Assembly (NCBI RefSeq): GCF_000760295.1
Contig: NZ_JNBA01000001.1
Span: 1-54,639, forward strand
From: Prochlorococcus sp. MIT 0701
GTDB taxonomy: Bacteria > Cyanobacteriota > Cyanobacteriia > PCC-6307 > Cyanobiaceae
Length of the DNA stretch: 54,639 nucleotides
Direction: 5' to 3'
Under the pieces are notes generated by a model. The model saw only the letters and a list, made by a program, of their open reading frames with translations, made no database searches and was not told where the DNA came from. The position numbers were made by a program, and so were the translations under genes. Below, piece after piece: positions 48,942-54,639 of the stretch. Each line of letters opens with the position of its first letter. Positions within the stretch are counted from its first letter, which is position 1.

Positions 48942-50381
48942 ATGCCTAGCGTGATCATCAAAGAGAAGGTCCTAGACGGAAGAGGTGAGGTTGTTGCTTA
49001 TAAGCATCAGCCAAGTATTTATGTGTATAGAGAGTGGATAAAGGAGCGTCGAGCATACAGAAGCAAGAGATTAGAAGGTGCTAGGAACATAGAAGATGCA
49101 AAAACGCTAGCATTAGAGGTAGCATTTCAGTTTGCTGGTAAAACTACATCTGCAAATAAGAAAGAACAAGATGCAATAGATAGAACTCTAAAGACACAGG
49201 CAATAGAGAAGGCAATTGAGTCTTATCTTAACTATCAAAAGAAAAGAGCAGAAAGTGATATTATCAAACGTGCAACCTATGAACACAAGGAAGTAACGCT
49301 AAGAAAGCATCTATTAAACTACTTACAAGAAGAAGGCATAACTAAGACAAGGCAGATTAATGAGATGACATTCCAAAACTACTTGATATACCGTAAAGGA
49401 ATGAAGAAGCTAACGTGGAAAGCTGAAATAGTGATAATTAAGGATTTTCTATCTAACTGGTTGTTGAAACATAGGTTGATTGAACCTGAGGTCGTAGCAG
49501 ACAAGAACCTCTTCCCAACAATTAAGATACGTCAGGATGACTTAATGGCTAATCCTGCTATAAATGCAGACGATTGGACTGTTATCAATAAGGAAATCAG
49601 AGCATGGGTATCACATGGTGCTTCACATCCCAATCATCGGGTGCACCTATGGAGAACATTGTTTTGGCATTACACACTCATAGCTAAAAACACAGGTGCA
49701 AGAGGGGAGGAATTACGAAAGCTACGATGGAAAGATGTTGAGATAAGGGATGTTGGAAGAATCTCAGCTAGGAAAAAGCAGGAAGAGATAGAAGAATTAG
49801 AGGCAGAAGGCATTGAGGTTATTGATGACGGTAACGATGATAACTATGCTTGGGCTACTAATCCAGAAGCATTAGGTCGTGAAGAAAGATTGATAGCTTA
49901 TGTAAATGTCACATCTGGCAAAACAGGACAATCAAGGGAAATACCTACCAGCATAGGATATGCTTTTATCAGGTGGCGTGATTATCTAAACCAATATTAT
50001 GAGCAGCATAAGTTTAATAAGCAGGTGTCTGGTAATGATTTGGTATTTGGGAACGTCAATAATGATGGTAAAGAATACAACAAGAAATCATATGTTATAA
50101 GTTGGGCTACTATTAGAAGTAATGCAGAAGACAGGTTAAAGGGACACAAATTCAGCAATCACAACTACACTCTATATTCACTACGTTCTACATTCGTCGA
50201 GAATAAACTACTAGAAGGCTGCGACCTGTTTCTATTATCAAGAATATGTGGTCATGATGCAAAAGTGTTGCTTAAACATTACGAACGTCTGGACATTAGG
50301 GAGCGAGCAGAAGAATTGACGGCTTTACCATTTGGCAAAACTAAGAAACAAGATATAAAGGTTGAACTGTTTAGCAATTAA
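48942..50381 (+). CDS. Tyrosine recombinase / integrase
   Basis: A 479-aa phage-type tyrosine recombinase. It has an N-terminal DNA-binding half and a catalytic half with R254 (TGARGEELRKLRWKDV), a lysine in SGKTGQSREIP (K327), the YSLRST box with R415, GHDA (H438) and the nucleophile tyrosine in HYERL (Y447). It carries Tyr in place of the first His of the H-x-x-R box, as seen in many phage integrases. The DNA is much richer in A than the core genes, consistent with recent transfer. It is longer than most such enzymes (~350-400 aa). Confidence 0.92.
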   Translation: MPSVIIKEKVLDGRGEVVAYKHQPSIYVYREWIKERRAYRSKRLEGARNIEDAKTLALEVAFQFAGKTTSANKKEQDAIDRTLKTQAIEKAIESYLNYQKKRAESDIIKRATYEHKEVTLRKHLLNYLQEEGITKTRQINEMTFQNYLIYRKGMKKLTWKAEIVIIKDFLSNWLLKHRLIEPEVVADKNLFPTIKIRQDDLMANPAINADDWTVINKEIRAWVSHGASHPNHRVHLWRTLFWHYTLIAKNTGARGEELRKLRWKDVEIRDVGRISARKKQEEIEELEAEGIEVIDDGNDDNYAWATNPEALGREERLIAYVNVTSGKTGQSREIPTSIGYAFIRWRDYLNQYYEQHKFNKQVSGNDLVFGNVNNDGKEYNKKSYVISWATIRSNAEDRLKGHKFSNHNYTLYSLRSTFVENKLLEGCDLFLLSRICGHDAKVLLKHYERLDIRERAEELTALPFGKTKKQDIKVELFSN

Positions 50382-51091: not shown

Positions 51092-52207
51092 ATGAAAAAC
51101 AACCCTATAGATAAGAATAGACAAAAGTTTAATAAGAGCACCAGTGCACTAAGTAATTGGCCATTCAGAGCAGCCCGTAAAGATGTAAGTAAGCATCCAG
51201 TAATGAAATCAAAGGAAGCTTGCTCTAATCGGATGGTTACTATGTTCAGTCAGCAGGAGGAGTTGATAGTTGTAGGACTGTCAAATCATCTCCAATGCGA
51301 CAAACGTGAAGCCTTACGTGTTGCTCTCCATGAACTGTGCTTGGACCCAAAGGCTGCTCTAGATAAATGCTATGTATATGCTAAATCAACCAGCAAAGAG
51401 CAAGGGCATACAAGTCGTGATAGGAAAGGCACGCTATCTCTACCTAAAGCAGAGAAGGAACTAGCACAGAAAACTGCTAAACAATTAGAGATTACAGATA
51501 AGGAATTAATTAGACTAGCTGTTATAACGGTAAGCTTGGGTCTAAATGATGATTCAATCAAACTAACCAATACCAAAAACGTAAGTGAACTAAAGGTGAT
51601 GAGGGATTGGTCTAGATCTAACCCAAACAAGGAATCTAGTATTAAGCCATTACTAATTGCTCAGCAAAAGGGAATAGAAAAGGCGGAGCAAGAGCGAGAT
51701 GAGAGACGCAGGGACACTGAAATCAGAAACAAAAACATAAGAGAGTACCTTAAATGTAATCCTGGCTTGAGCTGGGAAGCAGCTAGAATAGATTTAGAAG
51801 AAGGATTAGATCAGCATGACGCACTAGAACAACTTATAAGTCAAGAGGTAGAGAAAGAGTCACTTAATAAACTTGAGGAGAAGATACTACGTTATCAATT
51901 AAGCGGCTGGGATCTAACAGATGAAGAAGCGAGGCAAGCAGCTGAAATTGAACTAAAAGAAGAGACACCTTTGACTGAGGAGGAGACTGAGCAGCTAGAA
52001 AGAGAGTTAGAAGAGATGTTGATGGAAAAACATGAGTACGAAAAGAATAAACCTGCCAAAAGTAATCGTAAAATACCTCACCCACTTAAATACAAAGGAA
52101 GGTCTATGGATGAGCAGTTAAAGGATATAGATGAGAGAAGAGAGGAGATCATAAAAGCTCAACTACGTAGATACCGGATAGAAGGATTCTTTGACGACCT
52201 GCTCTGA
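51092..52207 (+). CDS. Island protein with two ribbon-helix-helix-like segments and a coiled coil
   Basis: A 371-aa protein. Residues ~49-85 (TMFSQQEELIVVGLSNHLQC, DKREALRVALHELCLD) and ~113-150 (TLSLPKAEKELAQKTAKQLE, TDKELIRLAVITVSLG) each look like a beta-strand and two helices, the ribbon-helix-helix plan of CopG/Arc repressors. A long charged coiled coil and a basic C-terminus (PHPLKYKGRS...) follow. It may be a DNA-binding or partition/regulatory protein of the element. No homologue is named. Confidence 0.65.
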   Translation: MKNNPIDKNRQKFNKSTSALSNWPFRAARKDVSKHPVMKSKEACSNRMVTMFSQQEELIVVGLSNHLQCDKREALRVALHELCLDPKAALDKCYVYAKSTSKEQGHTSRDRKGTLSLPKAEKELAQKTAKQLEITDKELIRLAVITVSLGLNDDSIKLTNTKNVSELKVMRDWSRSNPNKESSIKPLLIAQQKGIEKAEQERDERRRDTEIRNKNIREYLKCNPGLSWEAARIDLEEGLDQHDALEQLISQEVEKESLNKLEEKILRYQLSGWDLTDEEARQAAEIELKEETPLTEEETEQLERELEEMLMEKHEYEKNKPAKSNRKIPHPLKYKGRSMDEQLKDIDERREEIIKAQLRRYRIEGFFDDLL

Positions 52208-52771: not shown

Positions 52772-52847
52772 TATTTCTTAGATCAAACTAGTAGGGAAAG
52801 GAATCCACAGCTAGTAGATGGTAAGAAGAACATTGATAGTTCTTTAT

Positions 52848-52925
52848 AGGTATCGGATGTCGTTTTAAGCGAATATGGAAGTGGTTAAAGAAATAAAAAG
52901 CCCCTGCATTATCAGGGGCTTTGCG
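52848..52925 (-). repeat. Array spacer repeat, copy 1, with terminator
   Basis: AGGTATCGGATGTCGTTTTAAG...GGTTAAAGAAATAAAAAG leads into the stem AAAGCCCCTG (52897-52906) / CAGGGGCTTT (52913-52922). On the minus strand the stem is followed by TTTTTATTT, an intrinsic terminator. Similar units lie at 53522, 53985 and 54513. This copy ends the array at its left. Confidence 0.85.
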
Positions 52926-52931
52926 TGTGTT

Positions 52932-53117
52932 TTAGGCTGGTGCGGTCACCTGAGGTTGTAGACCCTCACATCCTATGACTCCCAGCCTCCCTATTGTAGT
53001 CATATATTTCCGCGTCGCCCATGGGATTCCAGGCCAATTGTTCCACCAGCCTCCAGATACTTCTGATAGTTCAGCTGTAGTCAGCTCTTGATCTAGCAGT
53101 TCAGTGTTGTTGTAGTC
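52932..53117 (-). pseudogene. Second double-glycine precursor copy without a start codon
   Basis: Reading the minus strand from 53117, the frame gives DYNNTELLDQ, ELTTAELSEVSGG, then a different core (WWNNWPGIPWATRKY...GVIGCEGLQ...) to a stop at 52932. The 82-bp start is a nearly exact copy of the one in the 53117-53296 gene (one base differs), but offset by 161 bp and so in another frame. No ATG/GTG/TTG lies in frame before the upstream stop at 53160-53162. It is either a fused remnant or is reached by frameshift from the first gene. Confidence 0.6.
53036..53117. repeat. 82-bp tandem repeat, copy 2
   Basis: This is 81/82 identical to 53197-53278 (one G/T difference), with a 161-bp period. 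It covers the leader end, the double-glycine site and the first residues of the core. Confidence 0.95.
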
Positions 53118-53296
53118 TAGGTTCGTGACTGGTTTGTAGTCAAACCGCTCAGATCCCAGTTAAAGAGTGCTTTGGTGAACCTGGAAGATCTATTATAATT
53201 GTTCCACCAGCCTCCAGATACTTCTGATAGTTCAGCTGTAGTCAGCTCTTGATCGAGCAGTTCAGTGTTGTTGTAGTCAGTGTTGATAGTAGTCAT
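53117..53296 (-). CDS. 59-aa double-glycine leader peptide precursor
   Basis: This frame falls just under a 60-aa cut-off. It reads MTTINTDYNNTELLDQ, then ELTTAELSEVSGG, then a core WWNNYNRSSRFTKALF... of about 30 residues with no Cys and ends QSRT. The leader is short and has the LS-x-(V)-SGG end of C39-peptidase-processed (class II/microcin-like) peptides, unlike the long Nif11 leaders to the right. The core is Asn/Ser/Thr/Trp-rich. The stop falls inside the duplicated leader copy. It sits in the array, so it may be a different precursor class or the product of recombination. Confidence 0.6.
   Translation of the reverse strand: MTTINTDYNNTELLDQELTTAELSEVSGGWWNNYNRSSRFTKALFNWDLSGLTTNQSRT
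53197..53278. repeat. 82-bp tandem repeat, copy 1
   Basis: Leader half of the 59-aa precursor; see the copy at 53036-53117. The near-identity points to recent duplication. Confidence 0.95.
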
Positions 53297-53299
53297 TGT

Positions 53300-53520
53300 T
53301 TTAAAGGTGATAAGTGTGTGAGTTGTGTTGGGTTGTTTCCCCTCGACTCCTACAAGATCTCAGCCTTTCTGGTGATCTCCACTACACAGCTCTGGTGTAG
53401 ACCCCAAGAGGTTCTGGTGAGCTTCTGGTGAACTGCTCAGATCCCAGTAAGAGACTTAACTGCAGACACCAAAGCCATTAAAAAACCTCGCTCGTGGCGG
53501 GGCTAAGTATTAATTATTGC
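53300..53520. other. Decayed precursor-like DNA
   Basis: No open frame of use is found. TTCTGGTGA-type units recur (around 53359, 53410 and 53420), and CTCAGATCCCAGT also appears at 53149, inside the intact precursor. A minus-strand terminator (53479-53502, stem CCTCGC/GCGGGG with a T-run) lies here. It looks like the remains of one or more cassettes. Confidence 0.5.
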
Positions 53521-53521
53521 C

Positions 53522-53597
53522 AGGTATTGGAGGCTGATTGATGGGCTTTTGGGGTGATTGAAGAAATAAAAAGCCCCTGCTAATGCAAGGGCTTTGA
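53522..53597 (-). repeat. Array spacer repeat, copy 2, with terminator
   Basis: AGGTATTGGAGGCTG... then GAAGAAATAAAAAGCCCC leads into a stem AAAGCCCCTGC/GCAAGGGCTTT (53570-53595) with one mismatch. On the minus strand it ends the transcript of the 53612-53944 gene, 17 bp from its stop. Confidence 0.85.
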
Positions 53598-53611
53598 GTG
53601 TGTAGGCTGTG

Positions 53612-53944
53612 TCATGCTGAAGGTATATTTTTCGTCGCGTAATTGCATTGGTTCGCATACCAGCCTGCCCCACAGACAATCCGACCATCATCAGCAACAG
53701 CAGAACAAATTGGCGCAGCAGTACACTTGTTTGTGCGGTACACCCAGCCTGCCCCAGCCACAGCTTCCAGCTCTAATTCAGACAGATTTTGTTGGCGATC
53801 AGAGTTTAGGTCTTCTGTGGTAATCGTGAACCCAGCAGCCTTTGCAATAGCAACAACATCAGCTCCTTCTGCTTTGAGCTGTTCCTGCAGTGAAGTATCG
53901 CCTTGAACTTTGGCAATGAATGCCTTGAGTTGATCTTCGCTCAT
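53612..53944 (-). CDS. procA: Nif11-leader (prochlorosin-type) precursor, four-Cys core
   Basis: A 110-aa precursor. Residues 1-60 are the Nif11-like leader (MSEDQLKAFIAKVQ, TSLQEQLKAEGADVVAIAKA, TITTEDLNS) ending ELEAVAGAG, the (G/A)G processing region. The core after ~residue 66 is WVYRTNKC...TAAPICSAVADDG...IVCGAGWYANQCNYATK, with Cys 74, 80, 91 and 100 and Thr/Ser 71, 75, 81, 104 and 109. Class II lanthipeptide formation by a single ProcM is established in Prochlorococcus; here only the precursor is present. Four Cys against five Ser/Thr allows up to four thioether rings. GAGW recurs inside the core. ATG start. Confidence 0.85.
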   Translation of the reverse strand: MSEDQLKAFIAKVQGDTSLQEQLKAEGADVVAIAKAAGFTITTEDLNSDRQQNLSELELEAVAGAGWVYRTNKCTAAPICSAVADDGRIVCGAGWYANQCNYATKNIPSA

Positions 53945-53984: not shown

Positions 53985-54053
53985 AGGTATCAAATGTCGT
54001 TTTGAGCAAATTTTGAGGCGTTTAAAGAAATAAAAAACCCCCTGAGGGCTTTG
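53985..54053 (-). repeat. Array spacer repeat, copy 3, with shortened terminator
   Basis: AGGTATCAAATGTCG...TTTAAAGAAATAAAAAA leads into a shortened stem (AAACCCC / GGGCTTT) with a mismatch. It lies before the 54078 gene's stop on the minus strand. The loop has lost several bases relative to the other copies. Confidence 0.75.
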
Positions 54054-54077
54054 CGTGTGTAGCCTGTGGGTTGTTAT

Positions 54078-54362
54078 TCAACATAACCTTATGTTTTTAA
54101 GTGGGCCTGACCTACCTGTATAGTTTGGCCCGCACCTTCCTATTTTAAAAGGGGACATCGTCAAAAATATTCCGCCGCTAGCGGATTCCAGCTCTTCATC
54201 AGACAGGTCTTGGCTTTGAGAGTTTAGGTCTTCTGTGGTAATCGTGAACCCAGCAGCCTTAGCAATAGCTACAACATCAGCGCCTTCTGCCTTGAGCTGT
54301 TCCTGCAGTGAAGTATCGGCTTGAACTTTGGCAATGAATGCCTTGAGTTGATCTTCTGACAC
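54078..54362 (-). CDS. procA: Nif11-leader (prochlorosin-type) precursor, two-Cys core
   Basis: A 94-aa precursor with a GTG start. Its leader is ~95% identical at the DNA level to that of the 53612 gene, including MSEDQLKAFIAKVQADT and AIAKAAGFTITTEDLNS. It ends DEELESASGG, so the core starts at Ile65: IFLTMSPFKIGRCGPNYTG...SGPLKNIRLC, with Cys 77 and 94 and Thr/Ser 68, 70, 82 and 85. Two rings are possible. Core and leader have separate histories: the leader is conserved, the core is unrelated to its neighbour's. Confidence 0.9.
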   Translation of the reverse strand: MSEDQLKAFIAKVQADTSLQEQLKAEGADVVAIAKAAGFTITTEDLNSQSQDLSDEELESASGGIFLTMSPFKIGRCGPNYTGRSGPLKNIRLC

Positions 54363-54512: not shown

Positions 54513-54590
54513 AGGTATCGGATGGCGTTTTAAGCGAATAGGGAAGTCGTTGAAGAAATAAAAAGCCCCCGCGATTGCAGGGGCTTTGAG
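54513..54590 (-). repeat. Array spacer repeat, copy 4, with terminator
   Basis: AGGTATCGGATGGCG...GAATAGGGAAG...GAAGAAATAAAAAGCCCCC leads into a stem AAAGCCCCCGC/GCAGGGGCTTT (54562-54587). As the other copies sit 3' of minus-strand precursors, another precursor gene is expected to the right of 54600, cut by the window edge. Confidence 0.85.
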
Positions 54591-54639
54591 TATGTAGGTT
54601 TGGGGAGTGGTCGTAACGATCTTTTCTGCTCATCTCCCT

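What the first reader, a model, noticed from the sequence alone, without database searches (positions are those of the whole stretch)
52932..53296. Hidden 59-aa double-glycine precursor with a frame-shifted duplicate leader
A frame just under the usual size cut-off encodes a short-leader SGG precursor. A 161-bp tandem copy (81/82 identical) repeats leader end and cleavage site in another frame, followed by a different core with no start codon. The stop of the first gene is made by the copy. This could be a fresh fusion of two cassettes, a decayed gene, or a way to make two cores from one start by frameshift. Precursors of this leader type are not the known Nif11 prochlorosins.
Basis: seen in the sequence. 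Interest (0 to 1): 0.85.

Follow-up and report, generated by a model that had tools for sequence, protein, structure and literature searches.

The report
Secreted-peptide gene with decapitated twin
This is a real, short gene for a small secreted peptide from a marine cyanobacterium, one of about twenty sister genes sharing one on-switch and one export tag; the second copy beside it is most likely a damaged leftover that lost its own switch and start, not a way to make two peptides at once.

Summary
The 59-aa ORF is a genuine precursor gene. The genome holds about 23 paralogues with the same leader and hypervariable cores; relatives occur in four genomes of another genus. The leader is under protein-level selection (pN/pS 0.12). 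Gene 1 carries an intact 4-box (TCACCAG) promoter: 20 exact sites in this genome, 0 in the reversed-pattern control. Elsewhere that promoter also precedes Nif11 and other GG-leader precursors. The copy is most likely a decapitated tandem gene. A piece of the promoter's upstream flank (19-nt exact match) now encodes the end of core 1, while the promoter boxes, 5'UTR and start codon of the second gene are missing. No slippery heptamer exists, so programmed frameshifting is unsupported. Two sister genes carry decayed, out-of-frame leader ends directly behind their cores, which also supply the stop codon, so the window looks like a fresh stage of core replacement (inferred). Closest named families: CCRG-2 RiPPs and class IIb double-glycine bacteriocins; the window gene falls below their cut-offs, several paralogues pass. 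The peptide's function is untested.

The parts
53370..53431 (-). Four (T)CACCA(G) promoter boxes: 53431-53426, 53420-53415, 53397-53393, 53374-53370 (spacing 11/22/23 bp)
   Evidence: Genome pattern search: 20 exact plus one 1-mismatch family site, 0 in reversed control; conserved over 87 aligned sites in six genomes
53297..53369 (-). Conserved downstream promoter/5'UTR segment leading to the ATG
   Evidence: Paralogue alignment
53117..53296 (-). Gene 1: 59-aa double-glycine precursor
   Evidence: family of paralogues
53210..53296 (-). Leader (29 aa) ending L-12, E-8, L-7, V-4, G-2, G-1
   Evidence: Sequence; pN/pS 0.12 for codons 5-18 against members in G270
53120..53209 (-). Core 1 (30 aa, no Cys); stop TAG at 53117-53119
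53143..53166 (-). Remnant of the family promoter's upstream flank inside core 1 (AACTGGGATCTGAGCGGTT at 53143-53161 exact to the C7 promoter flank)
   Evidence: (D5)
53118..53144 (-). Probable degenerate start region of the second gene (TTGACTAC...; longer than the intact leader start, so out of frame)
   Evidence: Alignment; inference
53036..53117 (-). Copy 2: leader codons 7-29 plus first core codons, -1 frame, no start codon
52932..53035 (-). 'Core 2' frame, running into 3' flank shared with sister genes, where it is non-coding (52932-52986 is 85% identical to C23)
52845..52932 (-). Repeated terminator module (hairpin 52897-52922 then T-rich tail), 88/88 identical behind the C23 gene and also found behind Nif11 genes

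Best explanation
Gene 1 is an ordinary-looking, probably expressed member of a paralogous short-leader double-glycine precursor family. Inferred action: a DNA-binding regulator (OmpR/PhoB-like by box geometry) reads the four boxes, a 59-aa precursor is made, and a C39 peptidase-transporter cuts after Gly29 and exports a 30-aa peptide. Copy 2 is the remains of a second tandem family gene that lost its promoter boxes, 5'UTR and start codon in rearrangement that joined it to gene 1. It is now untranslated 3' sequence of gene 1; its first base completes gene 1's stop, and a piece of its promoter flank became the end of core 1. The locus looks like a fresh case of core replacement through the conserved leader. 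Shown: the family, leader selection, promoter conservation, promoter remnant, missing start, leader fossils in sisters. Inferred: the recombination path, cleavage, export and regulator.
For: About 23 leader paralogues in the genome and relatives in G270, G259, G168/Synechococcus sp. UW105, G276. Leader codons 5-18 pN/pS 0.12 between G000 and G270. Intact 4-box promoter on gene 1; 20 exact sites, 0 control; absent in front of copy 2. 19-nt exact promoter-flank match inside core 1. No start in copy 2 and no slippery site. Out-of-frame leader-end fossils right after the cores of C23 and C45 at p<=0.001, overlapping their stop codons, followed by a 3' flank related to that of copy 2. Complete C39 export system on C36.
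Against: No transcript, ribosome or peptide data were available. Core 1 has no homologue, so its function cannot be tested by conservation. The promoter remnant implies more than one rearrangement step. The assembly is a draft whose contigs often end inside this family, so local misassembly is not fully excluded.
Confidence: 0.72

Rival explanations
1. Programmed -1 frameshifting near 53117 joins gene 1 to copy 2, giving one precursor with two GG sites and two cores.
For: The copy is in the -1 frame and both frames overlap without stops from 53159 to 53117.
Against: No XXXYYYZ heptamer and no homopolymer of 5 or more in the region; the core-2 frame extends into flank that is non-coding in sisters; no relative with this arrangement was found.
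Confidence: 0.03
2. The whole locus is functionally dead: gene 1's core was scrambled by the fusion and yields no functional peptide, though it may still be transcribed.
For: The end of core 1 is promoter-flank DNA; core 1 has no relative; other members have lost ATG (ATT at C23, CTG at C37).
Against: Promoter, UTR, ATG, leader and GG site are all intact with consensus boxes; cores in this family are normally unrelated to each other.
Confidence: 0.3
3. Assembly artefact: two distinct family loci collapsed into a chimera.
For: Draft of 53 contigs; C1, C7, C11, C23, C36, C40, C45 end in or near family members.
Against: An 82-bp repeat is short for current assemblers (general knowledge); flanks on both sides are a coherent cassette; sisters C23 and C45 show leader fossils in the same place.
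Confidence: 0.08
4. Copy 2 is an independent gene started from a non-standard codon (CTG 53159 or ACG 53126).
For: Open frame from 53159 to 52934; CTG and ATT stand at the start position in two paralogues.
Against: It lacks the family promoter, UTR and start context; those two paralogues keep promoter and UTR.
Confidence: 0.04

Closest known systems
CCRG-2 family RiPP (NCBIfam NF033456; picocyanobacterial peptides cited in PMC8120280)
   Same: Short leader ending in ELT.DQL..I.GG, small precursors in many copies, picocyanobacteria; several paralogues of this family pass the cut-off (C7 27.0 bits, several in G270)
   Different: The window gene itself is not reported by that model; longer leader with the block NTDYNNTELLDQEL; the shared 4-box promoter is not described in the sources I could read
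Class IIb bacteriocin, lactobin A/cerein 7B (TIGR03949) and bacteriocin leader (TIGR01847)
   Same: Classic GG leader; two paralogues with Gly-rich hydrophobic cores pass TIGR03949 (26.9 and 25.9 vs 21.5)
   Different: Window gene just misses (20.2 vs 21.5; 14.9 vs 15.7); its core is polar and aromatic
Prochlorosins (Nif11/N11P leader, LanM-modified)
   Same: Conserved leader with hypervariable cores, scattered paralogues, GG cleavage; Nif11 genes are next door in the window
   Different: No Nif11 domain; core 1 has no Cys, so no lanthionine ring is possible
Cyanobacterial double-glycine precursors of Wang et al. 2011 (PMC3140520)
   Same: Group-V-like export machinery (cyclic-nucleotide-domain protein, ABC, HlyD, short C39-ABC) in this genome
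   Different: That survey screened regions around the clusters; these precursors lie on other contigs than the C36 transporter

Membership tests
Double-glycine leader peptides (C39/PCAT substrates) | L-12, E-8, L-7, V/I-4, G-2, G-1 pattern at the leader end | tested here: met
   L18, E22, L23, V26, G28, G29 in the window gene; conserved in paralogues
Double-glycine leader peptides (C39/PCAT substrates) | C39 peptidase-transporter in the same genome | tested here: met
   Three C39 loci; the C36 one is TIGR03796 at 1036.9 bits, over cut-off, with HlyD and cyc_nuc_ocin neighbours
Double-glycine leader peptides (C39/PCAT substrates) | Cleavage and export demonstrated | not testable with these tools
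   Needs biochemistry or mass spectrometry
CCRG-2 RiPP (NF033456) | Curated model score of 24 bits or more | tested here: not met
   Window gene not listed; paralogue C7 27.0 bits and several G270 members pass
Class IIb bacteriocin (TIGR03949) | Curated model score of 21.5 bits or more | tested here: not met
   20.2 bits; two paralogues pass
Class IIc bacteriocin (PF10439) | Gathering score 27.1 | tested here: not met
   13.5 bits
Prochlorosin / Nif11 precursor | Nif11 leader domain (PF07862 / TIGR03798) | tested here: not met
   No hit for the window gene; neighbours at 53612-53944 and 54078-54362 hit strongly
Prochlorosin / Nif11 precursor | Cys plus Ser/Thr in the core for lanthionine rings | tested here: not met
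   Core 1 has no Cys
Programmed -1 ribosomal frameshift | Slippery XXXYYYZ heptamer in the overlap | tested here: not met
   None in the 365 bp

The most novel reading that the evidence does not exclude
New peptide cores are built by recombination in the invariant leader: DNA is joined behind the leader and in front of an older, out-of-frame leader copy, which supplies the stop codon and then decays. The window is a fresh case, C23 and C45 are older ones, and promoter DNA itself can be recruited as core sequence. The family works inside a larger secreted-peptide regulon defined by a 4-box promoter that spans several leader types, including Nif11.
Probability: 0.35. Interest if true: 0.8.

Novelty: new variant of a known kind. 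Interest (0 to 1): 0.55.

Why it matters
How hypervariable cores arise behind near-invariant leaders is an open question for picocyanobacterial peptides. This locus and its sisters show physical traces of the process (leader fossils that also provide the stop codon, promoter DNA turned into core). The shared promoter gives a sequence handle for finding secreted-peptide genes that size cut-offs miss and for identifying the regulator of peptides whose function is unknown.

Tried and rejected
Viral contigs: no relative by protein or DNA pattern. The first promoter pattern had a wrong spacer (15 instead of 17) and found nothing; corrected. Frameshift: no heptamer, no runs. A first fossil-leader scan with loose gap costs gave weak extra hits; the stricter dinucleotide-shuffle version kept the window, C23, C45, the UW105-type gene (G168 C5) and C18; C18 is discounted because the match is a neighbouring short precursor's own leader. 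A possible 5'UTR hairpin (GGGGG..CCCCC) was aligned but not tested for pairing and is not claimed. The CCRG source paper is not held. The sigma-70 scan found no convincing promoter for gene 1.

Full report
Observation. The minus-strand ORF 53296-53117 encodes 59 aa with a leader ending ELTTAELSEVSGG. An 82-bp stretch inside it (53197-53278) is repeated at 53036-53117 with one mismatch, spaced 161 bp. The copy is in the -1 frame, and that frame has no ATG, GTG or TTG between its upstream stop (53162) and the GG site. The stop TAG of gene 1 takes its last base from the copy.

It is a family. The same leader occurs at 22 places in the genome at E<=1, and about 23 counting truncated ends and the second copy. 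Leaders are nearly identical (MT.FNTDYNNTELLDQEL..), cores mostly unrelated. Relatives occur in four genomes of another genus of the same family: G270 (17 matches), G259, G168 and G276; one such locus is from Synechococcus sp. UW105. Only 14 of 400 genomes of the family match at all, so the distribution is patchy. Leader codons 5-18 have pN/pS 0.12 between 14 G000 and 12 G270 members, so the leader is selected as protein. One pair of adjacent genes keeps its cores across the two genera (core pN/pS 0.12-0.14 and 0.36); the first of them passes the class IIb bacteriocin cut-off. The window's core has no relative.

The promoter. Paralogues share about 130 bp upstream of ATG with four (T)CACCA(G) boxes spaced 11, 22 and 23 bp. 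The pattern TCACCAN5TCACCAN17CACCA gives 20 exact hits and one 1-mismatch family site in this genome, none in the reversed control. All 21 precede family genes, some truncated at contig ends, except one that precedes a 555-aa subtilase on C37. In six genomes 87 sites were aligned. In G276 and others the same promoter precedes Nif11 precursors, other GG-leader precursors and small proteins that look Sec-exported by eye. In the close relative G001 there are only 1-2-mismatch hits, near control level. Two repeats 11 bp apart recall OmpR/PhoB-type sites; that is inference.

Copy 2. It lacks boxes, UTR and ATG. Between the two leaders, core 1 contains AACTGGGATCTGAGCGGTT, an exact 19-nt match to the DNA immediately upstream of box 1 in the C7 member and a near match in many others. 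It is followed by TTGACTAC.., which aligns to a degenerate leader start with extra bases. The simplest reading is a second tandem gene whose promoter boxes and UTR were deleted. Downstream, the 'core 2' frame enters sequence that is 3' flank, after the stop, in the C23 and C45 sisters, then a terminator module 88/88 identical to that behind the C23 gene.

Leader fossils. In a scan of 36 members with 1000 dinucleotide shuffles each, five reach p<=0.001: the window, C23, C45, the UW105-type gene and C18; the next is 0.01 and the rest are 0.18 or above. C18 is the leader of a neighbouring precursor and is discounted. In C23 and C45 the fossil overlaps the stop codon of the gene before it, as in the window. 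C23 and C45 share the fossil and flank but differ in core. This suggests repeated replacement of the core between a kept leader and an older leader. The mechanism is inferred.

Frameshift. No XXXYYYZ heptamer and no run of five identical bases exists in the 365 bp. I see no support for it.

How it works. Expression from the 4-box promoter, recognition of the leader by a C39 peptidase-transporter, cleavage after Gly29 and export. The C36 locus encodes a complete candidate system (cyclic-nucleotide-domain protein, ABC, HlyD, C39-ABC). No link between this transporter and these precursors was tested.

Known context. Double-glycine precursors in cyanobacteria were surveyed by Wang et al. (PMC3140520). 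CCRG-2 peptides are cited in PMC8120280; prochlorosins are surveyed in PMC10783134. I found no paper in the held library that describes this leader block or promoter, but the library lacks most subscription journals, including the CCRG source paper.

Noticed in passing
G000:C37, L083:3615-5417 (-): A 555-aa subtilase (Peptidase_S8, 4.5e-20) sits under the same 4-box promoter and 5'UTR as the precursors, beside a CTG-start family member. It could be a co-regulated maturation or secreted protease.
   Followed up: partly
G276, G259, G168, G155, G270 (L163-L206): The 4-box promoter precedes Nif11 precursors, several GG-leader types and small proteins with apparent Sec signals: a secreted-peptide regulon. 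The regulator is unknown.
   Followed up: partly
window 52848-52930, 53521-53603, 53985-54067, 54513-54595: A repeated terminator module of about 83 bp stands behind both Nif11 and short-leader genes, with 16 matches in the genome.
   Followed up: partly
L081:12554 and 12023; L062:1984 and 1439: A conserved adjacent pair of precursors (Gly-rich hydrophobic core plus cationic amphipathic-looking core) across two genera; looks like a two-peptide bacteriocin.
   Followed up: partly
window 48942-50381 and 51092-52207; L079:1436-4081: A phage-integrase-family gene and a 371-aa protein of unknown family lie next to the precursors. The latter has a 34%-identical counterpart on C7 beside another integrase, LanM and a family precursor: island-like setting.
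   Followed up: partly
window 53612-53944: The neighbouring 110-aa Nif11 precursor reads VAGAG where GG is expected at the leader end.
   Followed up: no
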